64,000 nucleotides of DNA from Pararhodobacter aggregans (GTDB lineage Bacteria > Pseudomonadota > Alphaproteobacteria > Rhodobacterales > Rhodobacteraceae), in NCBI RefSeq assembly GCF_003075525.1, contig NZ_QDDR01000007.1, forward strand, positions 1-64,000, written 5' to 3'. The translations under genes were made by a program, and so were the position numbers. Below are positions 6,995 through 54,971 of the stretch, piece after piece. Under the pieces are notes generated by a model. That model was given only the letters and a program-made list of their open reading frames with translations, was not told the origin of the DNA and searched no databases. Every line of letters begins with the position of its first letter. Position 1 is the stretch's first letter.

Positions 6995-7016
6995 TCTGCA
7001 ACCGATGGGCCGGATC

Positions 7017-7659: not shown

Positions 7660-7689
7660 GTCACAGGCTCGTGAGCAGAGCCGCTTGGG

Positions 7690-8933: not shown

Positions 8934-9062
8934 ATTTCCTCCGTTCTGGCGGCCTCGGCTCGGGCGCCTTGTTCCGGGCATGGCCCGGCTCAAAGCTAGA
9001 GCCCGGCGACGTTACGTCCAGAGGATTTGCCGCTGGACAGCGGGAAGAGTGGCGAGTACCAA

Positions 9063-9098
9063 ATTCCAGATAGAGAATGCCATTCCAAGGGGGGAATG
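9063..9098. promoter_or_regulatory. Clustered ATTC/GAAT half-sites: candidate IclR operator
   Basis: GAATG C CATTC (9075-9085) is a perfect palindrome, and CATTCC (9081-9086) also pairs with GGAATG (9093-9098); a further ATTCC starts at 9063. The sites cover the leader and ribosome site of the iclR gene, so binding would fit autorepression and control of the following operon. Inference from symmetry and position. Confidence 0.55.
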
Positions 9099-9102
9099 CC
9101 GC

Positions 9103-9900: not shown

Positions 9901-9912
9901 GAGGAGTCCGTG

Positions 9913-11997
9913 ATGGAAGGTCCCGTCCGCTATGAATCCCACGGCGATATCGCCGTGATCCGCATCGACAACCCGCCGGTGAACGCCACCAGCCACGCGG
10001 TGCGTGAAGGGCTTGTCGCTGCCGCCGCGCACTTCGCCGCCTCGCCCGAGAAGGTCGCGGTGCTGGTGGCCGAGGGGCGCACCTTCATCGCCGGGGCCGA
10101 TATCACCGAATTCGGCAAGACCCCGAAGGAGCCGCATCTGCCCGATGTGATCCACCGGATCGAGGCCAGCGAAAAGCCGGTGGTCTGCGTGATCCACGGC
10201 ACGGCGCTGGGTGGCGGGTTCGAGGTGGCGCTGGGCTGTCATTACCGGGTGATGCTGAAAGGCGCGCGGATCGGCCTGCCCGAGGTCAATCTGGGCCTGC
10301 TGCCCGGCGCCGGCGGTACGCAGCGCCTGCCGCGGCTGATCGGCATCGTGCCCGCGTCCGAGATCTTCACCTCGGCCGCGCAGGTCAAGGCCGAGGATTG
10401 TCTGGCGCTGGGGATCGTCGACGAACTCTCGACCGCCGACCCCTTCGAGGCCGGGATGACCTTCGCTCGCAAGGTTCTGGCCGAGGGCCTGCAGGTGCGC
10501 CGGGTCAGCGAGATGTCGGTGCCGCCGACCGATGCCGAGGCGCTGGCGGCGCTGAAGAAGAAGGTGGCGAAGGCCAACCCCGGCCATGTCTGCCACCTGC
10601 GCGCCATCGACACGGCGGTCGAGGGCACCAGACTGCCCTTCGCCGAGGGGATGAAGCTGGAACGCGCGGCCTTCTGGGACATGATGCAGACCCCCCAGCG
10701 CGCCGCCATGATCCACGCCTTCTTCAGCGAGCGGAAGGTGGCCTCGCTGCCCGAGTTGAAGGGCGTGGAGCCGCGCAAGCTGGCGCAGATCGGCGTGATC
10801 GGCGGCGGCACGATGGGCGGCGGCATCGCCGTCTCCTGCCTGCTGAACGGGCTCTCGGTGGTGCTGATCGAACGCGACGCCGAAGCGGTCGAGAAGGCGC
10901 ATAACGGCATCGCCCGCACGCTCGCGGACAGCGTGAAGCGCGGCAAGCTGGGGGCGGATGCGCGCGACATGCTGCTGGCCGACAAGCTCTTGGTGACCGA
11001 CGATTACGCCAGATTGTCCAACGCCGATCTGGTGATCGAGGCGGTCTTCGAGTCGATGGAGGTGAAGAAGGATGTCTTCACCAAGCTCGATGCCGTCTGC
11101 AAGCCGGGCGCGGTGCTGGCCACGAACACCTCGTATCTGGACGTGGACGAGATCGCCGCCATGACCAAACGCCCCGAGGATGTGATCGGCCTGCATTTCT
11201 TCAGCCCGGCGCATGTCATGCGGCTTTTGGAAATCGTGGTCGCCGCCAAGACCGCCAAGGATGTCGTGGCCACCGGCTTCGCGCTGGCCAAGGCGCTGAA
11301 GAAGGTCCCGGTCCGCGCCGGTGTCTGCGACGGGTTCATCGGCAACCGCATCCTCAAGACCTATCGCACGGCGGCCGATATCATGGTGCTGGAAGGCGCC
11401 TCGCCCTTCCAGGTGGACAAGGCGCTGGAGGATTTCGGCTTCGCCATGGGGCCCTATGCGGTGGCCGACCTTGCGGGCATCGACATCGGCTACCTGACCC
11501 GCAAGCGTCTGGCGCCGACCCGCAAGCCGGGCGAGCGTTGGGGCGAATGGGGCGATGTGCTGTACGAAATGGGCCGGCTGGGTCGCAAGACCGGCCACGG
11601 ACATTATGTTTACGACGAAGCCAGCCCCAAGGGCCGCCCCGACCCCGAGGTCGAGGAGATCATCGCCCGCGAGCGCAACGCCAAGGGGATCACGCCGCGC
11701 AGCTTCACCGACGCGGAGATCGTCGAGCGCTACATGGCGGCGATGATAAACGAGGGCGCCAAGGTGGTGGGCGAGGGGATCGCGCTGCGCCCGCTCGACG
11801 TGGATGTGACCAAGCTCTTCGGCTACGGTTTCCCGCGTTTCCGGGGCGGGCCGATGCATTACGCCGATGCCGTGGGGCTGGACAAGGTGCTGGCCAGCGT
11901 CGAGGCGGCCTATCAGGCGGGCGACGCGATCTTCGAACCCGCGCCGCTGCTGACGAAACTGGTGGCCGAGGGCAAGACCTTCGCCGATCTGAACTGA
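9913..11997 (+). CDS. Bifunctional enoyl-CoA hydratase / 3-hydroxyacyl-CoA dehydrogenase (PimF-like)
   Basis: 694 aa. Residues ~1-190 are a crotonase domain (AGADITEFGK, GTALGGGFEVALGCHYRV, LPEVNLGLLPGAGGTQRLPR with both catalytic glutamate contexts). From about residue 293 comes a 3-hydroxyacyl-CoA dehydrogenase (IGVIGGGTMGGGIA, then GLHFFSPAHVMRLLEIV) with two C-terminal dehydrogenase domains (FIGNRILKTY; GFPRFRGGPMHYAD). It carries out the second and third steps of beta-oxidation. Starts at ATG 9913 six bases after GAGGAG. With the thiolase and two acyl-CoA dehydrogenases behind it, the order matches pimF-B-C-D of dicarboxylate degradation in Rhodopseudomonas. Confidence 0.94.
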   Translation: MEGPVRYESHGDIAVIRIDNPPVNATSHAVREGLVAAAAHFAASPEKVAVLVAEGRTFIAGADITEFGKTPKEPHLPDVIHRIEASEKPVVCVIHGTALGGGFEVALGCHYRVMLKGARIGLPEVNLGLLPGAGGTQRLPRLIGIVPASEIFTSAAQVKAEDCLALGIVDELSTADPFEAGMTFARKVLAEGLQVRRVSEMSVPPTDAEALAALKKKVAKANPGHVCHLRAIDTAVEGTRLPFAEGMKLERAAFWDMMQTPQRAAMIHAFFSERKVASLPELKGVEPRKLAQIGVIGGGTMGGGIAVSCLLNGLSVVLIERDAEAVEKAHNGIARTLADSVKRGKLGADARDMLLADKLLVTDDYARLSNADLVIEAVFESMEVKKDVFTKLDAVCKPGAVLATNTSYLDVDEIAAMTKRPEDVIGLHFFSPAHVMRLLEIVVAAKTAKDVVATGFALAKALKKVPVRAGVCDGFIGNRILKTYRTAADIMVLEGASPFQVDKALEDFGFAMGPYAVADLAGIDIGYLTRKRLAPTRKPGERWGEWGDVLYEMGRLGRKTGHGHYVYDEASPKGRPDPEVEEIIARERNAKGITPRSFTDAEIVERYMAAMINEGAKVVGEGIALRPLDVDVTKLFGYGFPRFRGGPMHYADAVGLDKVLASVEAAYQAGDAIFEPAPLLTKLVAEGKTFADLN

Positions 11998-40431: not shown

Positions 40432-41049
40432 TCAGCCCAGAAGGTCGTTGCAGGCAAAGACCGGCAGATCCAGCGCCGCGGCAAGGCTTTGCAGCCATTC
40501 CCGCCCCGGCGCCGCCCCCGACGGGTCGAGGATCTCGCAGATCACCGCCGCCGGGCGCAGGCCCGCGCGGTCGCAGATCTCGACCGCGGCGCCGGGGATG
40601 CAGCCCCCGGCGCGCGGCCCGTCCCGCTCTACCCGGATCGGGAAGACATGGCCCGGCGTCGCCAGATCCCCCGGCACCGCCCCCGGACGGATCGCCGCCG
40701 CCACCGTCCGCGCCCGGTCCGGCGCCGAAATGCCGGTCGAGACGGCATGCGTCGCCTCGATCGACAGGGTGAAGGGCGTGGCGAAGCGGCGCCGGTTGCT
40801 CTGCGGTTGCAGCGCCAGCTGCAGCCGGTCCACGATCCGGCTGTCCAGCGCCAGACAGACCAGCCCCCGCGCATGGGTCGCCATCCGGTTGATCGCCCCG
40901 GCATCGGCGAAATCGGCCGGGATCATCAGGCAGGGCAGCGCCCCGCCCTCGGGATCGCAGAGGATCATCATCCGGGCCTCACGCGCGCAGTCGACGGGCG
41001 ACAGGGCCAGGGGCTCGACCGGCGGGTCGAAGGTGCAGTGTCGGGTCAT
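40432..41049 (-). CDS. RibB-like (DHBP synthase fold) protein lacking catalytic residues
   Basis: 205 aa. The fold is recognisable by DAGAINRMATHARGLVCLAL, FTLSIEATHAVSTGISAPDR, PGHVFPIRVERDG and AGLRPAAVICEILDPSG. However, the metal/substrate loop DRENEGD of true RibB reads PEGGALPCL here, and the GGHTEA active-site His is replaced (GGCIPGAAVEI); only the ICEI glutamate remains. It is therefore unlikely to make dihydroxybutanone phosphate. Its ATG overlaps the dctM stop by ATGA, so it is expressed with the TRAP transporter. Role unknown. Confidence 0.82.
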   Translation of the reverse strand: MTRHCTFDPPVEPLALSPVDCAREARMMILCDPEGGALPCLMIPADFADAGAINRMATHARGLVCLALDSRIVDRLQLALQPQSNRRRFATPFTLSIEATHAVSTGISAPDRARTVAAAIRPGAVPGDLATPGHVFPIRVERDGPRAGGCIPGAAVEICDRAGLRPAAVICEILDPSGAAPGREWLQSLAAALDLPVFACNDLLG

Positions 41050-42359
41050 GGGCGCATCAACTCCGGGATGATCGTGGCGATCTCGGGGAAGGCGAAGACC
41101 GCGGCGGCTGTCAGGAACTGACAGAGGATGAAGGGGAACACGCCGCGATACATCGCAAGGGTCGAGAAATCGCGCGGCGCTATGCCCTTGAGGTAAAAGA
41201 CCGCAGGCGCCATCGGCGGCGTCAGATACGAGGTCTGCAACATGATGACCGCCAGCACGCCGAACCACATCGGATCCACCCCCGCCGCATGCAGGAAGGG
41301 CAGGAAGATCGGCGTGCAGATCAGCACCGCCGAGATCCAGTCAAGGATCATCCCGGCGATGAAATAGGCAAAGAGCAGCACGATGACCAAGCCGGCAGGC
41401 CCGACATCCAGCGAGGACACCGCCGCATCGACCAGCTCGGCCCCGCCCTGGATCTTGAAGATGCTGGTGAACATGGTGCCGCCCAGCGCGATGAAGATGA
41501 TCATCGACGAGACCGTCGCGGTCTTCACCGTGGCGTTCCAGGTCTCGCGCCAGCTGAAATCGCGGTAGAGGATGTTCAGCAGCACCGCCCCCACCGCCCC
41601 GATGGCCGCGGCTTCGGTCACGGCGGCGATGCCCAGGAGGATCGAGCCGATGACCGAGGTGACCAGCACCAGCGGCGGGAAAAGCGCATAGGCGGTGAAG
41701 CCGAGCTTCCGGCCCAGCGGCATGTCCTGGCCGAAATGGACCCGGGGCGCCGACGCGGGCCAGATCAGCGCATAGACGATGATCCAGATCAGGAAGAAGC
41801 CGACCATCAGGAAGCCCGGCACCAGCACCGCACCGAACAGCGTACCGATCGGGATCTGCGCGACCGAGGCATAGATCACCACGACGATCGAGGGCGGGAT
41901 CATCGTCCCCAGCGAGCCCCCGGCGCAGATCGTGCCCGAAATGATCGACTTGCTGTAGCCCGCCGCCCGCATCGGCCCCATGACCAGCAGGCCGGTCATC
42001 ACCTCGACCGCTCCGACCACGCCGGTTCCGGCGGCGAACAGCGTGCACATCGACAGCGTGGCGATGGCCAGGCCCCCGGGCAGGCGGCCCATCCACATCG
42101 AGAGCGATTCAAAGGCCCGCTTGCCGATGCCCGAACTCTCCAGCACCGCGCCCATGAAGATGAACAGCGGCACCGCGGCCAGCGAGTAATTGGACGAGAC
42201 GCTACCGACGAACTGGTAAAGCTGCAGCCCGGTCAGGCTGCCGAAGACCGGAAAGGCAAAGATCACCGCGACGATGATCAGCGAAAAGGCGACGGGGATG
42301 CCGGCGAAGATCAGCGCGAAGGCGGCCGGGAACATCCAGATGGCGAGATCGGCGTCCAT
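41046..42359 (-). CDS. TRAP transporter large permease (DctM)
   Basis: 437 aa with about 12 hydrophobic segments. Typical DctM features are FAAGTGVVGAVEVMTGLLVM, SKSIISGTICAGGSLGTMIP and PSIVVVIYASVAQIPIGTLF, and near the end VLAVIMLQTSYLTPPMAPAV. It is the sodium-coupled membrane component of a TRAP carboxylate transporter. The small subunit gene ends one base before it. Confidence 0.95.
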   Translation of the reverse strand: MDADLAIWMFPAAFALIFAGIPVAFSLIIVAVIFAFPVFGSLTGLQLYQFVGSVSSNYSLAAVPLFIFMGAVLESSGIGKRAFESLSMWMGRLPGGLAIATLSMCTLFAAGTGVVGAVEVMTGLLVMGPMRAAGYSKSIISGTICAGGSLGTMIPPSIVVVIYASVAQIPIGTLFGAVLVPGFLMVGFFLIWIIVYALIWPASAPRVHFGQDMPLGRKLGFTAYALFPPLVLVTSVIGSILLGIAAVTEAAAIGAVGAVLLNILYRDFSWRETWNATVKTATVSSMIIFIALGGTMFTSIFKIQGGAELVDAAVSSLDVGPAGLVIVLLFAYFIAGMILDWISAVLICTPIFLPFLHAAGVDPMWFGVLAVIMLQTSYLTPPMAPAVFYLKGIAPRDFSTLAMYRGVFPFILCQFLTAAAVFAFPEIATIIPELMRP

Positions 42360-42360
42360 G

Positions 42361-42882
42361 TCAGTGCCCCTCGGCCGGGGTGGTCGGGGTGGCGATCAGG
42401 CGCAGGGCTGAGGCCAGCGTCTTGCTCAGGATCTGCAACCACAGGATCGAGAGGCCCACGGCGATCATCAGCCGGAACGGCCAGAGCACCGGACGCCAGG
42501 GGCTGACCGTCTCGACCGTGCCGTGGACATAGGCGGTCCAGAACTGGCTCCAGGCGATCAGGCTGATGAAGCCCAGCGCGGGCAGCAAGAGCAGGGCGAA
42601 GACCGTGACCTCGATGATCCGCTTGGTCCGCTCGCGGAAGACCTGCGACACGATGTCGATGACGACATGCTGATCCACCTTCATCGCCAGCGCTCCGGCC
42701 AGCATGATGACGGTGCCGTTCAGCATGTAGGAAATGTCGTAGGCCCAGACGGTCGGCGCGTTGAAGAAATAGCGCGAGGTGACCTCGTAGAGGATGACAC
42801 CGATCATCAGCAGGATGCCGAAGGCGGCGACATATCCGGTGATCCGGGTAAGCCAGTCGATGAGTCGAAGAGCGTGTGACAA
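42361..42882 (-). CDS. TRAP transporter small permease (DctQ)
   Basis: 173 aa with four membrane helices: TGYVAAFGILLMIGVILYEV, ISYMLNGTVIMLAGALAMKV, EVTVFALLLLPALGFISLIA and RLMIAVGLSILWLQIL. The RYFFNAPTVWAYDISYM motif is typical of DctQ. The start is uncertain: TTG 42882 gives a normal length, GTG 42942 would add 20 residues. Confidence 0.92.
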   Translation of the reverse strand: MSHALRLIDWLTRITGYVAAFGILLMIGVILYEVTSRYFFNAPTVWAYDISYMLNGTVIMLAGALAMKVDQHVVIDIVSQVFRERTKRIIEVTVFALLLLPALGFISLIAWSQFWTAYVHGTVETVSPWRPVLWPFRLMIAVGLSILWLQILSKTLASALRLIATPTTPAEGH

Positions 42883-42969
42883 CGGGCGGCCCTGCCTGTT
42901 CTGTGGCGACGGGTGGCCGACCGGATGCGTCCGGCCAGCCACCGCTCTCGTGTTTCGGTCGGGACGGGA

Positions 42970-44031
42970 TCAGATGCTGTTCGCCTGCCAGCGATCATGG
43001 AAGCCGTAGTAGGACTCGGTCACCCGGCGCATCCAGTCGTCGCCCGCAGCCGCGCGCTCGGTCGCCTGGGCCTCGGCCCAGTCGCGACCGGCGGCGCGGA
43101 TCGCGTCGATCAGGGATTGGTCCATCTCGATGATCTCGATGCCGCGCTCGCGCATCGTCTCCATCGCCGTGAGGTCCGCCGCCGACCATTCGGTCAGGCA
43201 TTCGACAACCGCTTCCCGCGCCGCGATCTCGATCTTGCGCTGGATGGAGGCGTCGAGCTCGTCCCAGACCTCGGCCCGGATCGCCAGTTCGAGGCAGGCG
43301 GCAGGCGCATGGATCCCCGGCACGATCATGTAGGGCGCGGCGTCCTCCAGCCCCATGATGAGGTTCTCGGAGGGTGTCGACCATTCCGCGGCATCGACCC
43401 CGCGACGCTCCAGCATGGTGAAGACTTCGGACGGGCCCACGGTGGTGGCGGCGCCGCCGAAATATTCGTTGAGGATCGTGGCCCAGGCCCCGGCGGTGCG
43501 GAAGCGCACGCCCTGCAGATCCTCGGGGACGCGGATGATCTTGTGCGAATGCCAGACCTCGGACGGGTTGATGCTCAGCAGCATCGAATGCAGGCCCATC
43601 GTCTCGCGGCGGTGTTCCGCCAGCAGCTCCGAGCCGCCGCCGACGAAGTACCAGTTCAGCAATTCCTCGGCCGCCATGCCGCCGGGATGCCCGCCGAAGA
43701 GGCTGTTCACCGGGTCGAGGTTCACCGCCCAGAGCGGCGGCACCATGCCGGCCTCGGCCAGCCCGTCCTGCACCGCCTGATAGGTCTGCAACGGCGGCGC
43801 GATGGTGCCCCCGGCGAAGACCTGGAACGAGAACGACCCGTCGGTGACGATGTCCAGCACCCGCTGGAACGGGCCGACCGACAATTGATACATCTTCGAG
43901 GATTCCGGCACGATATGCGCGGCACGGATCCGGCTGCGCCCCTGGGCCTGCGCCGTGGTGCCCGCGAAGGCGGCGGCGGCCGATCCCAGGGCGGCGGTCT
44001 GGATGAAAGCTCTTCTCGACGGTTTTTCCAT
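42970..44031 (-). CDS. TRAP transporter substrate-binding protein (DctP, TakP-like)
   Basis: 353 aa. N-terminus MEKPSRRAFIQTAALGSAAA contains a twin-arginine-like export signal (SRRAFIQ). The mature protein has the Arg-containing LQGVRFRTAGAWATIL and RGVDAAEWSTPSENLIMGLE then YMIVPGIHAP, the E-W-x2-P pattern of receptors for monocarboxylate and 2-oxo acids. Of two tandem ATGs (ATGACCATG), the inner at 44031 is six bases from GGGAGA. It brings an unknown carboxylate to DctQM. Confidence 0.92.
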   Translation of the reverse strand: MEKPSRRAFIQTAALGSAAAAFAGTTAQAQGRSRIRAAHIVPESSKMYQLSVGPFQRVLDIVTDGSFSFQVFAGGTIAPPLQTYQAVQDGLAEAGMVPPLWAVNLDPVNSLFGGHPGGMAAEELLNWYFVGGGSELLAEHRRETMGLHSMLLSINPSEVWHSHKIIRVPEDLQGVRFRTAGAWATILNEYFGGAATTVGPSEVFTMLERRGVDAAEWSTPSENLIMGLEDAAPYMIVPGIHAPAACLELAIRAEVWDELDASIQRKIEIAAREAVVECLTEWSAADLTAMETMRERGIEIIEMDQSLIDAIRAAGRDWAEAQATERAAAGDDWMRRVTESYYGFHDRWQANSI

Positions 44032-44060
44032 GGTCATTCTCCCGGTTGGTGGTGGTTATT

Positions 44061-45968
<1,908 letters not shown>

Positions 45969-46001
45969 GGTGTCTCCTGGCCTTGTCATTCGGGAGCTTG
46001 G

Positions 46002-46541
46002 TCATTCGCTTGGGCGCGAGAGCGGGTCAGGCGTGTGATAGGCCGCGCGCAGGTAGATCAGCGGCGGCGCCCCGTCGTCGCAGCGCGTGCCGATGACCTG
46101 ACCCAGGAACATCGTGTGCGACCCCAGCCCGATGCATTCGATCAGCTCGCAATCAATGTTGGCCACGGCCGAGGTCAGCGCGGGCGAGCCGGTGACCAGG
46201 CTGTCCCAGTCCTGCGGTGCGAAGCGGATCGCACCCTTCAGCCCGTTCTGGCCGGAAAAGAGCGCCGCCTCGGGCACATGTCCGGCGGCCAGGACACTGA
46301 CGCAGAAGGCGCCGGTCCCCTTGATGACGTCATGCGCCTCGGCCGATTGGTTGACGAAGACGGCCAGCATCGGCGGGGTCGAGGTGACGGCGGTCACCGC
46401 CGTGACGGTGAGCCCGCGGCGATCCTCGCCCCTGCCGGTGGCGATGATCGAGACGCCACCGGCGAGATTGCGCATCGCCGCGCGGAAGGCCTCGGCCGAG
46501 ACAGGCTCGGAGCGGCCCTGAAGGGGTCGTACCAAAGTCAT
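46002..46541 (-). CDS. Flavin reductase (HpaC-like, NAD(P)H:FMN)
   Basis: 179 aa. FRAAMRNLAGGVSIIATG then GLTVTAVTAVTSTPPMLAVF and GAFCVSVLAAGHVPEAALFS are hallmarks of the flavin-reductase-like FMN-binding family; C-terminal GSHTMFLGQVIG follows. It supplies reduced FMN to a two-component monooxygenase, most likely the luciferase-like oxygenase two genes upstream. A strong hairpin lies just before it. Confidence 0.94.
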   Translation of the reverse strand: MTLVRPLQGRSEPVSAEAFRAAMRNLAGGVSIIATGRGEDRRGLTVTAVTAVTSTPPMLAVFVNQSAEAHDVIKGTGAFCVSVLAAGHVPEAALFSGQNGLKGAIRFAPQDWDSLVTGSPALTSAVANIDCELIECIGLGSHTMFLGQVIGTRCDDGAPPLIYLRAAYHTPDPLSRPSE

Positions 46542-46556
46542 GATGGGATCCTCTGC

Positions 46557-46581
46557 GGCCTTCGCGGGATCCGCGAAGGCC
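46557..46581 (-). other. Perfect intercistronic hairpin
   Basis: GGCCTTCGCGG, loop GAT, CCGCGAAGGCC: an 11-bp perfect stem in the 54-base gap between the crotonase and flavin reductase genes. No T-run follows, so it is more likely an mRNA-stabilising or processing element than a terminator. Confidence 0.6.
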
Positions 46582-46595
46582 GACGGGTGCCGGGG

Positions 46596-47366
46596 TTATT
46601 CGGCGTAGCGCTTCTTCTTGGCGGCGAAGGCGGCAGCGGCCTCGCGCCGTCCGGGCAGATCGAAGGTCAGCGCCTCAAGCGCCAGCCCGATGTCGAGGCC
46701 CAGCTGGACCTGATCCTTGATCAGCTTGTTGACCGCGTATTTGGTCCATTTGATCGCTTCCGGCGGGCCCGAGGCCAGGAGTTCGGCGTAGCGGATCGCC
46801 TCGTCCAGCACCGTGCCCTCGGGAACCAGCTTGGTGACCATGCCGAATTGCAGGGCCTCCTCGGCCGAGAGGAACGCGCCGGTCATCAGGTAATGCTTGG
46901 CCCGGATCGGCCCCATCAGCATCGGCCAGATGACCTGCCCGCCATCGCCCGCCACCACGCCCGCATTCACATGGGTATCGGCGAAGCGCGCGCTGGGCTG
47001 GGCGAAGACCGCATCGCAATAAAGCGCCAGCGTCGCCCCCAGACCCACGGCCACGCCATTGACCGCCGCGATGATCGGCACTTCCAGCTCAAGAATGTTG
47101 CGCACGATATGCCGCCCGCCCCGGGTGACCGAGGGCATGCCGGTATCGACCGCCTTCTGGTCCCCGCCCGAGCAAAAGCCGCGCCCGGCGCCAGTCAGCA
47201 CCACCGCCTTGACCGAAGGGTCCAGGTCGAGGTCGTAAAGCGCCAGCTCGATCTCCTCGTGCATCTGCCAGTTGATGGCATTGAGGATCTCGGGACGGTT
47301 CAGGGTCAGCACCGCCACGCCGTCGCTGCGGTGCTCGATGGTGATGAATTCGGGTTCCTTACGCAT
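46596..47366 (-). CDS. Crotonase-fold protein lacking the two hydratase glutamates
   Basis: 256 aa. The CoA-binding oxyanion motif GRGFCSGGDQKAVD and AVNGVAVGLGATLALYCDAV are intact. At the first catalytic Glu position of hydratases (FGQPEI-type) this protein reads FADTHVNAGVV, and at the second (AMEM-type) it reads AKHYLM. It may therefore catalyse a crotonase reaction other than simple hydration (hydrolysis, retro-Claisen, isomerisation). Overlaps the oxygenase gene by eight bases. Confidence 0.88.
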   Translation of the reverse strand: MRKEPEFITIEHRSDGVAVLTLNRPEILNAINWQMHEEIELALYDLDLDPSVKAVVLTGAGRGFCSGGDQKAVDTGMPSVTRGGRHIVRNILELEVPIIAAVNGVAVGLGATLALYCDAVFAQPSARFADTHVNAGVVAGDGGQVIWPMLMGPIRAKHYLMTGAFLSAEEALQFGMVTKLVPEGTVLDEAIRYAELLASGPPEAIKWTKYAVNKLIKDQVQLGLDIGLALEALTFDLPGRREAAAAFAAKKKRYAE

Positions 47367-48486
47367 CGCGCATCCCCCGGATGGTGTTGAGGATCTCGTC
47401 GGTCGGCCGCACCACGTTGTTGCGGTCGTTGAAATGCGGGATGATGTATTTGCCCACCATGTCGATGGCGTCCATGATCATCTCATGCGGGACGGAATCG
47501 AGGTGGAACAGCACCTCGTCCACGCCCATGTCGACGATCCGCTCCAGCTGCCGGATCACCGTATCGGGGCTGCCGCAGAGCGTGGTCCCGGAGTCGTTGA
47601 CCAGATAATCCCAGTCGGTCGCCGCACGCTGCAGCCCTTCCAGCCCCTCGGAGAAGTAATTGTAATCGTCGGCGATCTTGGCCAGCCGCGGATAGGCGTC
47701 GGTCGAGATCCTGGCGTAGTTCATCAGCGGTTCGGCGTAATTGTCCTTTGCCTCCTGATCGGTCTTGCCGATGCCCAGAAACAGCGGAATGCCAAGGCTG
47801 GGACGGGTCAGCGGCCCGTTTTCGTCGCGCTTCCAATTGTCCTTGTAGAGGGCGATGTATTCCGCCTGCTTCTCCCAGCCCGAATAGAAATTGTTCGACA
47901 GGCAGGCCATGCCCTGTTCGGCGGCATAGACGTGGCTGCGGGGGCTGGTCGCGGCGATGCCCATGATCGGATAGGGCTTTTGCAGCGGCTTCGGCACCAG
48001 CATGCGCGGCGGGACGTTGTAATGCTTGCCGCTGAACTTGAAGATGTCCTTCGACATCGCCTCCTTCATCAGCGCCAGCCCCTCTTCCATCTGCGAGAGG
48101 GTCTCGGCCGCCTCGACGTTGAAGGCCCGCATGGCGATGGTGGTGTTCGAGCGACCGGCGAAGAATTCCATCCGTCCGTTCGACAGGATGTCGGTGACCG
48201 CCAGCCGCTCGGCCGAGCGCAGGGCGTGGTTGAAGTTCTTGGGCATCAGCGTGACCGCCGGGCGCAACCGGATGCGCGAGGTCTTCGCCGCCAGATAGCC
48301 ATAGACCACCTCGGGCGCCGAGCTGGAAATGCCGCCCAGCGCCACATGCTGTTCCGAGAGCGAGACGAAGTCGAAGCCCATCTTCTCGGCGAAGACCGCC
48401 TCGTCGACCAGTTCATGCAGCCGCCGCGCGTAGCTATGGCCGACCTGCGTCTCCTGCTCTGACCAGAAACCGAATTTTAGCGTCAT
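47359..48486 (-). CDS. Luciferase-like (LLM) flavin-dependent monooxygenase
   Basis: 375 aa TIM-barrel bacterial-luciferase family. FVSLSEQHVALGGISSSAPE, RIRLRPAVTLMPKNFNHALR, NGRMEFFAGRSNTTIAMRAF and CGSPDTVIRQLERIVDMGVD are characteristic. These enzymes use FMNH2 and oxygen to oxidise diverse substrates (alkanes, sulfonates, cyclic ketones); partner flavin reductase is in the same operon. The starting ATG at 48486 is preceded by an inverted repeat at 48495-48517. First gene of the presumed operon. Confidence 0.93.
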   Translation of the reverse strand: MTLKFGFWSEQETQVGHSYARRLHELVDEAVFAEKMGFDFVSLSEQHVALGGISSSAPEVVYGYLAAKTSRIRLRPAVTLMPKNFNHALRSAERLAVTDILSNGRMEFFAGRSNTTIAMRAFNVEAAETLSQMEEGLALMKEAMSKDIFKFSGKHYNVPPRMLVPKPLQKPYPIMGIAATSPRSHVYAAEQGMACLSNNFYSGWEKQAEYIALYKDNWKRDENGPLTRPSLGIPLFLGIGKTDQEAKDNYAEPLMNYARISTDAYPRLAKIADDYNYFSEGLEGLQRAATDWDYLVNDSGTTLCGSPDTVIRQLERIVDMGVDEVLFHLDSVPHEMIMDAIDMVGKYIIPHFNDRNNVVRPTDEILNTIRGMRDA

Positions 48487-48494
48487 GGCACACC

Positions 48495-48517
48495 TTCCAA
48501 GCGTTATTCCCTTGGAA
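48495..48517. promoter_or_regulatory. TTCCAAG-N9-CTTGGAA palindrome upstream of the LLM gene
   Basis: Perfect 7-bp arms (48495-48501, 48511-48517) with a nine-base spacer directly upstream of the start codon of the first operon gene. The arrangement looks like an operator for a local regulator (AraC at 48.7 or Lrp at 51.3 kb), though neither family is known to need this exact pattern. Confidence 0.55.
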
Positions 48518-48639
48518 AGATGCTACGCCCGAGCGCGCCGCAGGTGCTGCCGAACTGCCCGCCGGACCGGACGGGCCGCAGCACAAAAAAGGGCCGGGCG
48601 CGGGGGGTCGAGTGGATTGTACCGGGGCCCCGGAACAGG

Positions 48640-48663
48640 CCTGCGGCAGGGCCTGCGGCAGGG
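48640..48663. repeat. Tandem 12-bp palindromic repeat
   Basis: CCTGCGGCAGGG occurs twice in a row (48640-48651, 48652-48663); each unit contains the palindrome CCTGC-G-GCAGG. It lies in the 243-bp gap between the AraC gene and the LLM operon, near where the AraC transcript should end. Confidence 0.5.
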
Positions 48664-48729
48664 CGAATCGGCCGGTCGGGACCGCGGCTCGTGACGGAAA
48701 GAACAGGGGTCAGTCGGGGGCGCCGTGCC

Positions 48730-49614
48730 TCAGGCGAAAGGCGTGCTGCCGCCCAGTTCGCCGGTCGCCTCGATGCGCCGCAGGTAGCGACGCGGGGAAT
48801 CGCCGAACACCTTCTTGAACATGGTGATGAAGGCGCTGGTCGATTCGTAGCCCAGATCCTGGGCGATGATCTGCACGCTGCTGCCCGCCGACAACCGCTC
48901 CAGCGCGACCAGCCCGTGCAGCTGGCGCCGCCACTGGCCGAAGGTCAGCCCGGTCTCGCGCACCACCCAGCGGGCGAAGCTGCGCTCGCTCATCGCCAGT
49001 TCGGCCGCCCATTCCGCCACCGTCCGCCGGTCGGCGGGATCGGCGAGCAGATGCTCGGCCACCGCCAGCAGCCGCGGATCGGACGAGATCGGCAGATGCT
49101 GGTCGCTGGTCGGCGCCTTGGCGAATTCATCCATCAATACCTGCGCCAGACGGCCCGAAGGGCTGTCCGGCGTGTAGCGGACCGAGCGCTGGGTCAGCGC
49201 CTCGGTGATGACCCGCATCAGGGGCGTCACACCCAGCGTGCAGCATTTCCGCGGCAGGCCCGAGACCTCGCCATCGACAAAGACGCAGATCACACTGCCA
49301 TTGGGCGAGACGGAATTGGAATGGGCGATGCCACCCGGCACCCAGAAGGCGCCGAAGGTCGGCACCATCCAGATCCCGTTCTCGACCCGGCAGGTGACCG
49401 AGCCGTTTTCGGCGATGACCAGCTGGCCCTTGCGATGGCTGTGCAGCGGCAATTCGTCATCGGCCGGACCGCGCCCCAGACGGATGGCGAAAACCGGGGT
49501 GTCGATGCGGTCGGGGTCGACATTGGGATAGCTGAGGGTGAGCGCCGGGTTGCGCTCTCGCAGGGACCAGACATGATTCTCATGCTCGATCTCCTGTTGC
49601 TGGTAGCTGTCCAT
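48730..49614 (-). CDS. AraC family transcriptional regulator
   Basis: 294 aa. N-terminal cupin-like sensory domain (ELPLHSHRKGQLVIAENG, MVPTFGAFWVPGGIAHSNSV) and C-terminal double helix-turn-helix (TVAEWAAELAMSERSFARWV; SVQIIAQDLGYESTSAFITM, FKKVFGDSPRRYLR). Likely activates the neighbouring catabolic operon when its substrate is present. It is on the same strand as that operon, so control of its own and adjacent promoters is plausible. Confidence 0.92.
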   Translation of the reverse strand: MDSYQQQEIEHENHVWSLRERNPALTLSYPNVDPDRIDTPVFAIRLGRGPADDELPLHSHRKGQLVIAENGSVTCRVENGIWMVPTFGAFWVPGGIAHSNSVSPNGSVICVFVDGEVSGLPRKCCTLGVTPLMRVITEALTQRSVRYTPDSPSGRLAQVLMDEFAKAPTSDQHLPISSDPRLLAVAEHLLADPADRRTVAEWAAELAMSERSFARWVVRETGLTFGQWRRQLHGLVALERLSAGSSVQIIAQDLGYESTSAFITMFKKVFGDSPRRYLRRIEATGELGGSTPFA

Positions 49615-49726
49615 CGGGCGACCTCCGAAGGTTGGCCTAGGGGACGCGTCCTCTGCCGCTGCGCCCCTCCTTGTAGCACAGGCAGGCCCGGTCGGTCGAT
49701 CATCCGCCGCGCGCGGCCTCGCCCGA

Positions 49727-50485
49727 TCAGGCCCTCGCCGTGAAATCCGCCAGGATCAGCCCGGCAATGGCCGTCAGACAGGCGGCGCCGATCCCGGCGC
49801 TGGCACCGCGGGCGTCGCCCAGAATGCCGTTGGGGCTGACCGCGGGCAGACCGTCGCGCCACATGACCTCCAGCTCGGCCCGGGTCATCAGGCCCGGGCG
49901 CCCGGCCTCGATCCGCGAGGGGCGCACCGCTTCGGGCCTGATATGCAGCATGAGCGAGGTTTCGGCGATATCGGCGTGCCCGCCGACGCTGGCAGCGGAT
50001 CCCCCGGCGGCGGCGACCGCCTCGGCCCAGCAGGTGAGCCAGGCGGTCGCGTCGGTAAAGGCCTCGACCCGCGCCCCGGGCACCGCCTGCCGCAACCCCG
50101 GCAGGGCGTTTTCCAGCACCGGGAAATTGCCGACATGCCCGGAATAGAAGAAGATTTCCGTGATGCCGTGCCGCAGCAGGCTGGTGCAATAGTCGCGGCA
50201 GATCGCGGTGAACGTGGCCTCGGACAAGGAGATCGTGCCGCTGAACGCAAGGTGATGGCTGGAACAGCCCACGGCGATGCTCGGCGCGATGAAGGCACCG
50301 CCCAGCCCCTTGGCGATCAGCGGCGCCAGCGCCTCGGCATGGTCGGTATCCATGCGCAGCGCCATATGCGGGCCGTGCTGCTCGATGGCGCCGCAGGGCA
50401 CCAGCGCCCGGGTGCAACCGGCAGCGATCGCCGCGGCAATCTCGGGCGAGGTCAGGCGTTCGAGAAAATGGACCGGCGCCTCCAT
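49727..50485 (-). CDS. Creatininase family amidohydrolase
   Basis: 252 aa. Metal ligands of the family are visible: Glu/His in AIEQHGPHMALRMDTDHAEA, His in FFYSGHVGNFPVL and a Glu in GGHADIAETSLMLHI. Members include creatininase, the deazaflavin-pathway enzyme ArfB and the mycofactocin peptidase MftE, so hydrolysis of a cyclic amide or peptide-like bond is expected but the substrate is not determinable. Followed after the AraC gene by the LLM operon. Confidence 0.9.
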   Translation of the reverse strand: MEAPVHFLERLTSPEIAAAIAAGCTRALVPCGAIEQHGPHMALRMDTDHAEALAPLIAKGLGGAFIAPSIAVGCSSHHLAFSGTISLSEATFTAICRDYCTSLLRHGITEIFFYSGHVGNFPVLENALPGLRQAVPGARVEAFTDATAWLTCWAEAVAAAGGSAASVGGHADIAETSLMLHIRPEAVRPSRIEAGRPGLMTRAELEVMWRDGLPAVSPNGILGDARGASAGIGAACLTAIAGLILADFTARA

Positions 50486-50488
50486 GGC

Positions 50489-51262
50489 TCAGACCCTGTC
50501 CCTGGCGAGGAACCGCGCCCGCGCCTCGACCGCCGCCGGCCGGTTGAGGATCTTGCGGAACTCGGTCAGCGTCCGGCGGCGCATCGCCTCGGCCTCGGCG
50601 GGATCTGCGCCCTGCACCGCGCGTTTCATGATCCCCAGGATCAGCGGATCCTTCGCCGCCAGCCCCGTCGCCGCCTCGGTGGCGCGGGCCAGGACCAAGG
50701 CATCGGGAACCACGCTTTGCGCCAGCCCCAGCGCCCGCGCCTCGGGCGCGGTCAGGAAACGCCCGCTCGACAACAGGTCGAAGGCCGCCTGCCGCCCGAG
50801 GATCGCCACCGCGCGGCGGATCCCGGTGATGGCGGGCATCAGGCCGTTGTTGATCTCGGGAAAGCCGAACCTCGCCCCCTCGCCCGCGATCACCACATCG
50901 CCCATCAGTGCCAGTTCCAGCCCGCCCCCGGCGGCATAGCCCCGGATTGCGACGACGATGGCCGAGGGATAGGCGCCCAGCGCCAGCAGCATGTGGTGGA
51001 ATTTCTCCATCCGGGCGAGGGCGTGGTCAGGCTCGGTCCCGTCCAGCTCCCTGATGTCGCCGCCCGCGCAGAAGAAGCGCTCGCCCTCGGCGGACAGCAG
51101 GACGACAGGCGGCTCGGACCGCTGGGCGAGGTCACGGAAGGTGGCGGTGATCGCCGCGATCAGGTCGCTGGTCAGGGCATTGGCGGGCGGACGGTCGAGG
51201 GTCAGCGCGGTCAGCCGGGGCGACAGGTCCTCGACCCGCAGGGAGGGGTGCTGGGCATTCAT
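50489..51262 (-). CDS. Enoyl-CoA hydratase/isomerase family protein
   Basis: 257 aa crotonase. Oxyanion hole ERFFCAGGDIRELDG and IRGYAAGGGLELALMGDVVI; the first catalytic Glu is kept (ARFGFPEINNGLMP), while the second position reads AAFDLLSSG (Asp instead of Glu). This fits a hydratase or isomerase. Three bases separate it from the creatininase-family gene, so they are co-transcribed. Confidence 0.9.
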   Translation of the reverse strand: MNAQHPSLRVEDLSPRLTALTLDRPPANALTSDLIAAITATFRDLAQRSEPPVVLLSAEGERFFCAGGDIRELDGTEPDHALARMEKFHHMLLALGAYPSAIVVAIRGYAAGGGLELALMGDVVIAGEGARFGFPEINNGLMPAITGIRRAVAILGRQAAFDLLSSGRFLTAPEARALGLAQSVVPDALVLARATEAATGLAAKDPLILGIMKRAVQGADPAEAEAMRRRTLTEFRKILNRPAAVEARARFLARDRV

Positions 51263-51268
51263 GGCGGA

Positions 51269-51790
51269 TCAATAGGCCGCGCGCGGGTAGCTGTCCGATA
51301 CCATGGTCAGATCGGCCGCGGTGCGATGGATCGGCAGCGCGGTCTTGTGACGCTGCTTGCGCAGGACGATATCGGTCTTCACCTGCTCCACCCCCTCGAT
51401 CCGCGAGACGCGGGCGGTGGCGAAACGCTCCAGCGCGTCGATATCGCGCATCATGACCCGCAGCACATAATCGAAATCGGACATGAGATAGAGCTCCATC
51501 ACCTCGTCCATGTCGCTGATCGCGGCGGCGAAGCGCTCCACCACATCGGTGCTGTGCCGCGACAGCCGCACCCGGACGAAGGCATTGACGCTCAGCCCCA
51601 GCGCCTGCGGGTTCAGCAGCGCCACGCGCCGCTCGATCACGCCGTTCTGTTCCAGGAATTTCACCCGCGACAGGCAGGGCGAGGGCGACAGGTGAATGCG
51701 CGAGGCCAGTTCGACATTGGTCAGCGATGCGTCTTGCTGAAGCTGGTTCAGGATACGGATGTTGGTGGCATCCAATGGCACGGCTGTCAT
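51269..51790 (-). CDS. Lrp/AsnC family regulator
   Basis: 173 aa. Helix-turn-helix LDATNIRILNQLQQDASLTN and VELASRIHLSPSPCLSRVKF, then RAM domain (EVMELYLMSDFDYVLRVMMR). Six bases before the crotonase gene; it may be the first gene of an operon with crotonase and creatininase and control both. The 250 bp upstream are AT-richer near 51.88-51.95 kb and probably hold its promoter. Confidence 0.92.
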   Translation of the reverse strand: MTAVPLDATNIRILNQLQQDASLTNVELASRIHLSPSPCLSRVKFLEQNGVIERRVALLNPQALGLSVNAFVRVRLSRHSTDVVERFAAAISDMDEVMELYLMSDFDYVLRVMMRDIDALERFATARVSRIEGVEQVKTDIVLRKQRHKTALPIHRTAADLTMVSDSYPRAAY

Positions 51791-53033: not shown

Positions 53034-54926
53034 TCACACCAGGAACCCGCCGAAGAACGCGGTCAGCTCCTCCCGCGCCGAGAGCGGCAAGACCTGCGCC
53101 ACGTATTGATCGGGCCGCACCACCACCAGACAGCCCCGCGCCTTGTCGATGCCCCGCGCGTCATAGATATTGACGCCCCGCTTGTGGTCGACGCAGAACA
53201 CCTTCTCGTAATCCCTGAGCCCCAGCGCCCCGCCCTGCGGCCTGAGCAGCGCGGGCATTGCCCCGTAGTCCAGCTCGCGGAACCCCGGCTGGAACACCGC
53301 CCGGACGTCGATCACCGCATCGATATCGTCACCCTCCCGCCGGTGGCGCAGCACGGGCGAGGCCGGATCCTGCTCCAGCCAGTCGCAGAGCGAGGCGACC
53401 GGCCCGCCCGGCTGCCCGACATCCCCCTCGGGCGCGAAGACGAAGAGCCGCCAGCGCGCGTCCGCCTCGATGCAATGGCCCAGCTCCATGGGCTTGGCAT
53501 CCGCCAGCCGGATCACCGGCGCCGAGTGGAACCGCTTGCCCAGATCGAAGCCCGGCGCCAGCGCCTGATGCGCCGCGCCGCCGGTCAGGGCCGAGGGCGC
53601 GTATTGAATGGTCAAGCCGCAGGTGAAAGGCAGGTTGTGGACGAAGGCCTGCGCCACCACCGGCAATTCGCCCGCCTTGTCATCATGCGTCTTCGCCCCG
53701 ACGATCCGCGCCCATTCATGGTCGAAATCCACCAGCCCCTTGGCCGCCGCCCGCCGCTCCTCGGTATAGGAATGCAGGAGCGAGGGCGCCGCCCGCCCGG
53801 TCAGCACATGGCGCAGCTTCCAGCCCATGTTGAACGTGTCGCCCATCGACACGTTCATCCCCTGCCCGGCCTTGGGGCTGTGCGTGTGGCAGGCGTCGCC
53901 GGCCAGCATCACCCGGGGCGCACGCGTCGCGACCTCACCCTGCGGCACGTCGTCGAACTTGTCGGTCAGCCGGTGGCCCACCTCATAGATCGACCACCAG
54001 ACGACCTCTTTCACGTCCAGCCGATAGGGCGCGAAGATGCGCTGCGCCTTGGCGATGATATGGCTGTCGTCCATCCCCCGGTCGGCGGCGCGCTCATCCT
54101 CGCCCAGCCGGTCGAGTTCCACGTAAAGCCGCACCAGATGCCCGCCCTCGCGCGGCAGGACCATCAGCGTGCCCTCGGCCTCCGAGCGCACGAAGGCCTT
54201 CATCCGCCAATCGGGGAAATCGGTGACCGCCAGCAGGTCGATGACCCCCCAGGCATGATGCGCCGCGTCCCCGTGCAGCGCCCCGCCGATCGCCCGGCGG
54301 ACCGAGGAGCGCGCCCCGTCACAGCCCACCACATATTTGGCGCGCACCACCTCCGTCTCGCCCTCGCGGCCGGGCGCGGTGTGTTCCAGCGTCACCGTGA
54401 CCGGGTACTCGCCCTCGGTGCCGACCACCAGATCCGCGACCCTCAGCCCGTAATCCGGCACCAGCCGGGTCGGCGAGTTCTTCATGATATCCAGATACAT
54501 GTCGTGGATCCGCGCCTGATTGATCAGGACATGCGGCATTTCGGACATGCCATCCGGCACGTCCTGCACCCGCGCCACCCGCTGGATCCCCGCGCCGCCC
54601 GGCGTCCAGAAGGTCGTCTCGTTGATCCAGACCGCTTCCCGGCTGATCTTCTCGGCAAAGCCGAAAGCGCCGAACATCTCCATCGAGCGGACCGAGATCC
54701 CGTCCGCCTGCCCCTTCTCGATCGGCCCCGGCTTCGGCTCGACGATCATCGTGTGGATGCCGGGCTCCAGCGCCAGTTGCGCCGCCAGACACAGGCCAGC
54801 CGGACCGCAACCGGCGATCAGCACATCCACCGCGCGCGGCAGACCGGCGCTGCGGTCATGCACCCGCGGCCCCGGGGCCAGAATGTCGGGATCGCCGGCG
54901 CGGAATCCGTTGCGGTGGTACTGCAT
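53034..54926 (-). CDS. FAD-dependent aromatic hydroxylase (3-hydroxybenzoate 4-monooxygenase-like)
   Basis: 630 aa. FAD motifs: VDVLIAGCGPAGLCLAAQLA (GxGxxG, residues ~32-55), CDGARSSVRRAIGG (DG motif) and VMLAGDACHTHSPKAGQGMN (GD motif), plus a C-terminal thioredoxin-like domain (FCVDHKRGVNIYDARG, VVVRPDQYVAQVLPL) as in phenol 2-monooxygenase and MobA. GGGAGAG precedes the ATG at 54926. A MarR regulator is divergent, as with mobA-mobR of 3-hydroxybenzoate degradation. Phenolic ring hydroxylation is likely; exact substrate inferred. Confidence 0.9.
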   Translation of the reverse strand: MQYHRNGFRAGDPDILAPGPRVHDRSAGLPRAVDVLIAGCGPAGLCLAAQLALEPGIHTMIVEPKPGPIEKGQADGISVRSMEMFGAFGFAEKISREAVWINETTFWTPGGAGIQRVARVQDVPDGMSEMPHVLINQARIHDMYLDIMKNSPTRLVPDYGLRVADLVVGTEGEYPVTVTLEHTAPGREGETEVVRAKYVVGCDGARSSVRRAIGGALHGDAAHHAWGVIDLLAVTDFPDWRMKAFVRSEAEGTLMVLPREGGHLVRLYVELDRLGEDERAADRGMDDSHIIAKAQRIFAPYRLDVKEVVWWSIYEVGHRLTDKFDDVPQGEVATRAPRVMLAGDACHTHSPKAGQGMNVSMGDTFNMGWKLRHVLTGRAAPSLLHSYTEERRAAAKGLVDFDHEWARIVGAKTHDDKAGELPVVAQAFVHNLPFTCGLTIQYAPSALTGGAAHQALAPGFDLGKRFHSAPVIRLADAKPMELGHCIEADARWRLFVFAPEGDVGQPGGPVASLCDWLEQDPASPVLRHRREGDDIDAVIDVRAVFQPGFRELDYGAMPALLRPQGGALGLRDYEKVFCVDHKRGVNIYDARGIDKARGCLVVVRPDQYVAQVLPLSAREELTAFFGGFLV

Positions 54927-54971
54927 GTCTCTCTCCCTCGGCGCCCGAACGGCGATGAAGGAATTAATAGC

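What the first reader, a model, noticed from the sequence alone, without database searches (positions are those of the whole stretch)
40432..51790. Candidate undescribed catabolic system: LLM monooxygenase, TRAP importer, CoA ligase, crotonases, creatininase-family enzyme and a dead RibB
Up to twelve genes run on one strand with short gaps or overlaps: Lrp, crotonase, creatininase-family protein, AraC, LLM oxygenase, atypical crotonase, flavin reductase, acyl-CoA synthetase, DctP, DctQ, DctM and a RibB-like protein. Import, CoA activation, flavin-dependent oxygenation, CoA-ester cleavage and amide hydrolysis would form a full pathway for an unknown, perhaps nitrogen-containing cyclic carboxylate. 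I do not know a described pathway with this set. That the RibB-like protein and the creatininase homologue recall flavin and deazaflavin metabolism is a lead only.
Basis: partly seen in the sequence, partly recalled or inferred. Interest (0 to 1): 0.85.

Follow-up and report, generated by a model that had tools for sequence, protein, structure and literature searches.

The report
Candidate nitrogen-ring acid breakdown cluster
A set of about nine enzyme and regulator genes that recurs together in distantly related bacteria probably lets them open and eat a nitrogen-containing ring acid, possibly the fungal toxin fusaric acid, but the exact food has not been shown.

Summary
The twelve genes are there, on one strand, tightly packed, and they form a conserved, patchily spread catabolic cluster. 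Relatives of nine (Lrp, AraC, crotonase 1, creatininase homologue, LLM, crotonase 2, CoA ligase, RibB, flavin reductase) lie together in Tistrella, Azospirillum, Bradyrhizobium, Paraburkholderia and Burkholderia, and eight of them in each of three Sphingomonadales loci. In 45 Azospirillum genomes LLM and creatininase homologue occur in the same 8. The TRAP importer is exchangeable. The LLM groups (93/97) with LLMs of presumed N-heterocycle loci, labels partly recalled, apart from presumed progesterone Baeyer-Villiger LLMs; 6 of those 7 loci carry an amide hydrolase. Best reading: CoA-activation of an N-heteroaromatic carboxylate, FMNH2-dependent ring opening, amide hydrolysis by the creatininase homologue, crotonase-led chain breakdown. 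A fusaric-acid-resistance-family pump orthologue is in 8 of 8 Azospirillum carriers and 4 of 37 others, so fusaric acid or a related alkylpicolinate is the leading, unproven substrate. The "dead RibB" is a motif-less relative of an intact RibB in other clusters, under purifying selection; intact RibB probably boosts flavin supply. New variant of a known kind.

The parts
51269..51790 (-). Lrp/AsnC-family regulator (173 aa)
   Evidence: Pfam HTH_24 / AsnC_trans_reg; relative in 10 of 16 genus labels; Lrp genes also near LLM in pYKAM101 and A. crystallopoietes
50489..51262 (-). Crotonase 1 (Cro1), hydratase-type: keeps both Glu motifs (GGGLELAL, FPEINNG)
   Evidence: ECH_1 135.6 bits; sequence; roles of the Glu recalled
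49727..50485 (-). Creatininase-family amide hydrolase (reaction inferred)
   Evidence: PF02633 208 bits; below cut-offs of creatininase (101.8 vs 235) and MftE (131 vs 172); EQHGxH, a following Asp, (G/A)HxGN and GGHADxAExS conserved in the 12 sequences aligned, one of which (L026) is cut by its stretch; same 8 of 45 Azospirillum genomes as the LLM
48730..49614 (-). AraC-family regulator
   Evidence: HTH_18; relative in 10 of 16 genus labels
48538..48552 (.). Palindromic operator-like site CGGCAGN3CTGCCG (one mismatch) 52-66 nt upstream of the LLM start; a second one-mismatch site at 48644-48658
   Evidence: a site with 0-1 mismatch lies in the last 90 nt before the LLM match in L010, L012, L015-L026 and L034 (one mismatch in L010, L015, L018, L022, L024); none there in L035, L036, L037, L050, L013, L014. 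Function not tested
47359..48486 (-). LLM: luciferase-like two-component flavin monooxygenase
   Evidence: PF00296 158.5 bits; orthologues at 69-78%, 99% in L015; tree; dN/dS 0.02 against L015
46596..47366 (-). Crotonase 2 (Cro2), atypical: T112/H132 in place of the hydratase Glu pair, conserved D141; start overlaps the LLM stop
   Evidence: nearest solved structures EchA15-type
46002..46541 (-). Flavin reductase (HpaC/RutF-like), presumed source of reduced flavin
   Evidence: PF01613 121.7 bits; RutF 114.7 vs cut-off 254.75
44061..45989 (-). AMP-forming acyl-CoA ligase (FadD11-like)
   Evidence: PF00501 + PF23562; FadD11 315.7 vs cut-off 950; relative in 13 of 16 genus labels
42970..44037 (-). 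TRAP importer DctP solute-binding protein (accessory)
   Evidence: PF03480; best plasmid relatives 40-41%, one of the two examined lies in a 4-hydroxyproline operon of Ruegeria pomeroyi
42361..42942 (-). TRAP importer DctQ (accessory)
   Evidence: PF04290
41046..42359 (-). TRAP importer DctM (accessory)
   Evidence: PF06808, TIGR00786 above cut-off
40432..41049 (-). RibB-like protein lacking the catalytic motifs; relative of the cluster RibB(A) of other genera
   Evidence: PF00926 140 bits; RibB cut-off not met, 104.7 vs 177.45; alignment; dN/dS 0.153, bootstrap 0.085-0.259

Best explanation
The cluster encodes a horizontally spread aerobic pathway for an N-heteroaromatic carboxylate (pyridine-carboxylate type). 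Proposed order: a transporter (here TRAP) imports the acid; the CoA ligase makes the thioester; the LLM, fed FMNH2 by the flavin reductase, opens the ring next to nitrogen and leaves an N-acyl (formamide-like) enamine; the creatininase-family enzyme hydrolyses that amide; spontaneous or genome-encoded deamination gives an oxo-acyl-CoA, which the two crotonases (one canonical hydratase, one atypical His/Asp enzyme) prepare for thiolysis or C-C cleavage. Lrp and AraC regulate it, perhaps through the palindrome before the LLM. RibB in the cluster raises flavin supply; in the window lineage it has lost its catalytic motifs and is kept for an unknown, perhaps regulatory or binding, role. Leading substrate: fusaric acid (5-butylpicolinate) or a related alkylpicolinate. 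Shown: gene content, conservation, co-occurrence, LLM kinship, loss of RibB motifs, purifying selection. Inferred: every reaction, their order, the regulation, and the substrate.
For: Nine-gene core conserved, with order changes, in other genera. LLM and creatininase homologue in the same 8 of 45 Azospirillum genomes, 178-247 bp apart. The LLM joins the 40-46% set (99/97) and then LLMs of presumed N-heterocycle loci (93/97, just under the starring threshold), with presumed progesterone LLMs in another starred group. Of the 7 presumed N-heterocycle loci, 6 show a flavin reductase (none in the R. pyridinivorans stretch) and 6 an amide hydrolase (none named in the pYKAM101 stretch): amidase next to a tpdB-annotated gene, amidase, amidohydrolase, deformylases, amidase + amidohydrolase + RidA. 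In the closer 41-43% actinobacterial set: amidase + RidA + aldehyde dehydrogenase with crotonase and ligase, and creatininase homologue-LLM-crotonase-crotonase-flavin reductase-ligase in Streptomyces sp. SAT1. Ring opening of trigonelline by TgnA/TgnB is stated in PMC8269262 (passage). A DctP relative at 41% sits with 4-hydroxyproline genes, a ring amine 2-carboxylate. FUSC pump association.
Against: No substrate, product or expression data. TgnA was not in the tree; TpdA and PicA labels rest on an annotated neighbour (tpdB) and on recall; the presumed N-heterocycle rows hold together only weakly (80/47), the tree is rooted at its midpoint and warns of long branches. No RidA or aldehyde dehydrogenase among the twelve genes. 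LLM enzymes also do Baeyer-Villiger chemistry (PMC12239570; probably PMC9836352; passages). Creatininase-family enzymes have other substrates. Whether CoA activation precedes or follows ring opening is not shown. FUSC-family pumps export other aromatic acids too (weak AaeB match), no FUSC relative was found in the non-Azospirillum loci, and at the search threshold 36 of 45 Azospirillum genomes have some FUSC homologue. The other examined DctP relative has no catabolic genes beside it. The two 45-46% LLM loci (L013, L014) showed no creatininase homologue, Lrp, AraC or RibB. Changing transporters may mean different substrates. The motif-less RibB fits flavin supply poorly in this lineage.
Confidence: 0.6

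Rival explanations
1. Specific form of the best reading: this is the fusaric acid (5-butylpicolinate) pathway. Ring opening next to the butyl-bearing carbon would release a five-carbon (valeryl) fragment, hence propionyl-CoA, and a 2-oxo acid for the 2-oxoacid dehydrogenase genes seen beside some copies.
For: PF04632 pump with DUF1656 and HlyD just upstream in Azospirillum oryzae L034, FUSC and HlyD relatives upstream in four more Azospirillum loci; its orthologue (>=68% identity, a cut set after seeing the gap down to 39%) in 8 of 8 LLM carriers and 4 of 37 non-carriers, within 5 kb in 5 of the 8; carriers recorded from soil, root nodule or onion; 2-oxoacid dehydrogenase genes near the Bradyrhizobium, Paraburkholderia and B. 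cepacia copies, an acyl-CoA carboxylase gene in Bradyrhizobium; B. ambifaria T16 and Burkholderia sp. IMCC1007 degrade fusaric acid (passages of PMC10728271 and PMC10293998).
Against: The Azospirillum carriers may be one lineage, so the association is not phylogenetically corrected; 36 of 45 genomes have some FUSC homologue; FUSC proteins also export other acids; the authors of PMC10293998 point to nic genes instead; the T16 genes were not seen; no FUSC relative in the window stretch searched or in the non-Azospirillum loci.
Confidence: 0.3
2. Type II Baeyer-Villiger pathway: the LLM inserts oxygen into an alicyclic or side-chain ketone carried as a CoA ester, and crotonase 2 acts as a beta-diketone or lactone hydrolase.
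For: An LLM does this for progesterone (PMC12239570, passages) and probably for anthraquinone (PMC9836352, passages); three cluster hosts are Sphingomonadales; 6-oxocamphor hydrolase and a beta-diketone hydrolase are among the crotonase 2 matches.
Against: The LLM lies apart from the presumed pdc LLMs; those hydrolases rank about 40th and lower, below EchA15-type and many hydratase entries; an amide hydrolase in the core and RidA in actinobacterial relatives have no evident role in this chemistry.
Confidence: 0.15
3. The cluster acts in flavin or deazaflavin metabolism (degradation of a flavin or a side product).
For: RibB-like and creatininase-family genes together; RibB domain intact in other genera.
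Against: CoA ligase and two crotonases are core; RibB is also found near LLM genes of other gene sets; the creatininase homologue fails the MftE and creatininase cut-offs.
Confidence: 0.05
4. The genes are separate units that happen to lie together.
For: Order varies; transporter, AraC, Lrp and RibB positions move between genera.
Against: Recurrence of the set across genera and perfect co-occurrence of LLM and creatininase homologue in Azospirillum.
Confidence: 0.02

Closest known systems
LLM-type N-heterocycle ring-opening pathways (trigonelline Tgn, pyridine Pyr, 2-methylpyridine Pic, tetramethylpyrazine Tpd; names except TgnA/TgnB and TpdB recalled)
   Same: Two-component flavin monooxygenase grouping with presumed TpdA/PicA-type LLMs (93/97), own flavin reductase, amide hydrolase partner in most loci examined, extra flavin genes in some
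   Different: CoA ligase and crotonases in the core; hydrolase is of the creatininase family; no RidA or aldehyde dehydrogenase among the twelve window genes
Fusaric acid degradation in Burkholderia ambifaria T16 (Vinacour et al. 2023; citation seen, content not seen)
   Same: Possible: Burkholderia carriers of the cluster; FUSC pump linked to it in Azospirillum
   Different: Cannot be judged; paper not held
Aerobic CoA-dependent hybrid aromatic pathways (benzoyl-CoA box, phenylacetyl-CoA paa; recalled)
   Same: CoA ligase + oxygenase + crotonase logic; crotonase 2 matches PaaG at 155.6 bits
   Different: LLM instead of a diiron epoxidase; PaaG cut-off 345.15 not met; substrate thought to be an N-heterocycle
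pdc progesterone cluster (PMC12239570, passages)
   Same: LLM monooxygenase; the paper discusses related genes in Croceicoccus estronivorus, a carrier of the present cluster
   Different: Different LLM group: the N. aromaticivorans plasmid LLM, taken by inference as the pdc one, is 29.7% identical; no ligase, crotonases or creatininase homologue in the passages seen

Membership tests
LLM-type N-heterocycle ring-opening pathway | LLM monooxygenase groups with N-heterocycle LLMs | tested here: inconclusive
   26-row group 93/97 (not starred), the presumed N-heterocycle rows themselves 80/47, inner 18-row group 99/97 starred; TgnA not available for the tree; labels partly recalled
LLM-type N-heterocycle ring-opening pathway | Dedicated flavin reductase | tested here: met
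   PF01613 gene at 46002-46541
LLM-type N-heterocycle ring-opening pathway | Amide hydrolase for the ring-opened N-acyl product | tested here: inconclusive
   Creatininase-family gene conserved with the LLM; its substrate is unknown
LLM-type N-heterocycle ring-opening pathway | Oxygen-dependent ring opening of an N-heterocycle | not testable with these tools
   Needs enzymology
Fusaric acid catabolic cluster of B. ambifaria T16 | Homology to the T16 genes | not testable with these tools
   Paper not held; T16 genome not reached
Aerobic hybrid CoA pathway (box/paa) | PaaG-type crotonase | tested here: not met
   Crotonase 2: PaaG TIGR02280 155.6 bits, cut-off 345.15
Creatininase (creatinine amidohydrolase) | NCBIfam TIGR04448 cut-off | tested here: not met
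   101.8 vs 235 bits; HYE of creatininase is HVG here
MftE mycofactocin peptidase | NCBIfam TIGR03964 cut-off | tested here: not met
   131 vs 172 bits
RibB (DHBP synthase) | Acidic DDEDRENEGD loop and GHTEA histidine | tested here: not met
   DPEGGALPC and GGCIPGA instead; loop (with small variants) and GHTEA present in the own-genome copies L044 and L045 and in the other cluster copies aligned, except L015, which shares the loss; TIGR00506 104.7 vs 177.45
Type II BVMO (progesterone pdc LLM) | LLM in the pdc group | tested here: not met
   Presumed pdc LLMs (N. aromaticivorans, Sphingobium TomMM15; labels inferred) in a separate starred 5-row group

The most novel reading that the evidence does not exclude
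The cluster is an aerobic 'hybrid' pathway for pyridine carboxylates: the acid is first turned into a CoA thioester and a luciferase-type monooxygenase then opens the N-heteroaromatic acyl-CoA, with crotonases finishing the chain. It would be the N-heterocycle counterpart of the box/paa strategy, shared by horizontal transfer among Alpha- and Betaproteobacteria with relatives in Actinomycetota, with flavin synthesis carried in the cluster and, in one lineage, a RibB turned into a selected non-enzyme.
Probability: 0.3. Interest if true: 0.75.

Novelty: new variant of a known kind. Interest (0 to 1): 0.5.

Why it matters
It turns a list of twelve guessed genes into one conserved, transferable pathway with a clear test substrate. 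If it degrades fusaric acid or similar pyridine acids, the genes would mark detoxifying rhizosphere bacteria and supply an enzyme set for breaking N-heteroaromatic acids. The repeated RibB-LLM neighbours suggest that catabolic islands can carry their own flavin supply, and the selected but motif-less RibB of the window lineage is a defined case for studying how an enzyme becomes a non-enzyme.

Tried and rejected
AlphaFold models of crotonase 2 (pLDDT 51) and of the RibB-like protein (pLDDT 48) were too poor with 9 and 7 sequences and were not used for any fold search. A 6-oxocamphor-hydrolase-type His/Asp pair in crotonase 2 was considered from memory; in the PDB profile search that enzyme ranks about 40th, so it stays a lead. 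The flavin/deazaflavin idea and the Baeyer-Villiger idea were weighed and set low (see rivals). A clean empty site in the same-genus genome G603 was sought: both flanks exist but on two contigs, and the inner side of each (8.2 and 9.0 kb) has no match to the window above 35 bits except the end of the phenol-hydroxylase-type gene, so the insertion is not resolved. Paper searches listed no title or abstract start that names this gene set; I read passages of ten papers and no whole paper. The one likely source, Vinacour et al. 2023, is not held. The palindrome was found after looking at the alignment, so its chance figure (4.6e-6 for the window) is only a guide. The identity cut for the FUSC orthologue was also set after seeing the list.

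Full report
WHAT IS THERE. All twelve genes lie on the minus strand and match the families named. Spacing allows one transcript; the longest gap, 243 nt, is before the LLM. The RibB-like frame most likely starts at 41049, overlapping the dctM stop. Promoter-like (2, shuffles 1.3) and terminator-like (4, shuffles 4.2) sites do not exceed chance.

IS IT A REAL UNIT. With the LLM as query, 6 of 385 genomes of the class match at 1e-100: the window genome, three of one genus at 77-78%, two at 45-46%. In the own family 1 of 394 (the window genome itself; a genome of the same genus, G603, has none) and in a phylum sample 1 of 398 (again the window genome) match at 1e-80, so it is rare and patchy. The named-genome scan returned 19 loci, of which I analysed the 12 at 69% or more (L015-L026) and used two of the seven at 24-26% only in the tree. 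Plasmid searches gave 24 records at 1e-40 and 61 at 1e-20; I opened 22 of these neighbourhoods, two of which (R. opacus VOC-14, Rhodococcus sp. USK10) carry no annotation there.

The core recurs. Creatininase homologue, LLM, crotonase 2, ligase, RibB, AraC and Lrp were found in every Tistrella, Azospirillum, Sphingosinicella, Sphingomonas, Croceicoccus, Bradyrhizobium, Paraburkholderia and B. cepacia locus. Crotonase 1 was not found in L024 and L026 (both cut by the end of the stored stretch) and the flavin reductase not in L025. Streptomyces sp. SAT1 carries creatininase homologue, LLM, two crotonases, flavin reductase and AMP-binding protein side by side.

As a test inside one genus, 45 Azospirillum genomes were searched: LLM in 8, creatininase homologue at 1e-30 in exactly the same 8, 178-247 bp from the LLM (Fisher P 4.6e-9, uncorrected for kinship).

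WHAT VARIES. The transporter: TRAP in the window and L015, MFS in Tistrella, Azospirillum and the Sphingomonadales loci (with a TonB receptor in L024 and relatives of it in L025 and L026), ABC in Bradyrhizobium, porin plus MFS nearby in Paraburkholderia, none named in the B. cepacia stretch. L015, a MAG with 99% LLM identity, shares the flanking genes too, so the acquisition probably predates that split; in G603 the two flanks lie on different contigs.

WHAT THE LLM IS. In the tree of 41 rows the 12 orthologues form one group (100/100); with the 40-46% set 99/97; with 8 rows from 7 presumed N-heterocycle loci 93/97. Those are R. opacus 1CP (next to a gene annotated tpdB of the tetramethylpyrazine oxygenase), R. 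pyridinivorans SB3094, Arthrobacter sp. 68b plasmid p2MP (PicA by recall), pYKAM101, A. crystallopoietes, Aminobacter and Variovorax. An N-heterocycle role is not demonstrated here for any of them: the group name is partly recall, partly inferred from neighbours, and the eight rows hold together only at 80/47. The tree is rooted at its midpoint and warns of long branches. An amide hydrolase is annotated in 6 of the 7 loci (not pYKAM101) and a flavin reductase in 6 of 7 (not R. pyridinivorans). The presumed pdc-type progesterone LLMs fall in another starred group. PMC8269262 (passage) states that trigonelline breakdown begins with ring opening by TgnA/TgnB.

OTHER ENZYMES. Crotonase 1 keeps the two hydratase Glu motifs. 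Crotonase 2 does not and has invariant T112, H132 and D141 in the nine sequences. The creatininase homologue keeps conserved His/Asp/Glu motifs (metal roles recalled) but fails creatininase and MftE cut-offs. The ligase is FadD11-like at a third of that cut-off. The start of crotonase 2 overlaps the LLM stop by 8 nt, which fits, without proving, that the LLM product is already a CoA ester.

RIBB. In other genera the cluster gene has a RibB domain with the motifs, small variants apart, in Tistrella fused to a GTP-cyclohydrolase-II-like domain; the window and L015 copies are RibB alone, without the acidic loop and the GHTEA histidine. Between window and L015 the dN/dS is 0.153 (bootstrap 0.085-0.259; neutral P 6.5e-12), within the range of its neighbours (0.02-0.38): not a decaying pseudogene on this pair. 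The genome has two other RibB genes with the motifs (L044, L045). RibB near an LLM was also seen in Rhodococcus ZPP, pYKAM101, Pseudosulfitobacter P7, Sphingobium AntQ-1 and Novosphingobium EMRT-2 and at C16 of this genome; no LLM was annotated near RibB in Croceicoccus marinus (flavin reductase only) or Novosphingobium ES2-1, and Niveispirillum is unannotated. These were picked, so no rate is claimed.

SUBSTRATE. A full-length PF04632 pump (573 bits) with DUF1656 and HlyD precedes the cluster in L034; FUSC and HlyD relatives also in L016, L017, L022, L023 and a FUSC remnant in L021, not in L019 or L020. Over 45 genomes 36 have some FUSC homologue at 1e-60; the close orthologue (>=68% identity; the next is 39%) is in 8 of 8 carriers and 4 of 37 others (P 2.3e-6), within 5 kb of the LLM in 5 of 8. 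Kinship is not corrected. 2-oxoacid dehydrogenase genes lie near three copies. Fusaric acid would fit these, but no experiment or paper seen here shows it. What Vinacour et al. 2023 found is unknown to me beyond the title.

REGULATION. A palindrome CGGCAGN3CTGCCG with 0-1 mismatch lies in the last 90 nt before the LLM match in L010, L012, L015-L026 and L034 and twice in the window gap, not in the Bradyrhizobium, Paraburkholderia, B. cepacia or Streptomyces loci or in L013 and L014.

VERDICT. A CoA-linked LLM pathway for an N-heteroaromatic carboxylate is the best reading (0.6); fusaric acid is the best single substrate (0.3).

Noticed in passing
L064 (G000:C16:74000-92000), 3666-11881: A second module in the same genome: LLM (7394-8647, -), RibB with intact motifs (8535-9182, -), and, judged by eye from the translations, a flavin-reductase-like protein (9883-10488, +), an alpha/beta hydrolase (10976-11881, +) and a sugar-type ABC importer.
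   Followed up: partly
L067 (Pseudosulfitobacter plasmid P7), 815-9975: Conjugative plasmid with TAXI-TRAP importer, CoA ester lyase, CoA transferase, LLM, flavin reductase, RibB and IclR: a different catabolic cassette with the same LLM-reductase-RibB trio.
   Followed up: no
L082 (Sphingobium AntQ-1 pl4) and L083 (Novosphingobium EMRT-2): RibB genes within a few kb of LLM genes on plasmids.
   Followed up: no
L034 22398-25119: In Azospirillum oryzae the Lrp gene is followed by cytochrome c, 2Fe-2S and molybdopterin-binding protein genes, possibly a further N-heterocycle or aldehyde hydroxylase.
   Followed up: no
window 53034-54932: Phenol 2-monooxygenase-type flavoprotein (946 bits vs cut-off 560) upstream of the cluster, also in L015 and, at 80%, in G603 without the cluster, so probably separate; a MarR-like frame, judged by eye, lies beside it on the other strand.
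   Followed up: partly
window 42970-44037: DctP relatives at 40-41% are found on roseobacter plasmids; the one in Ruegeria pomeroyi lies with 4-hydroxyproline epimerase and a dihydrodipicolinate-synthase-family gene, the one in Sulfitobacter faviae with no catabolic genes.
   Followed up: partly
   Followed up: partly
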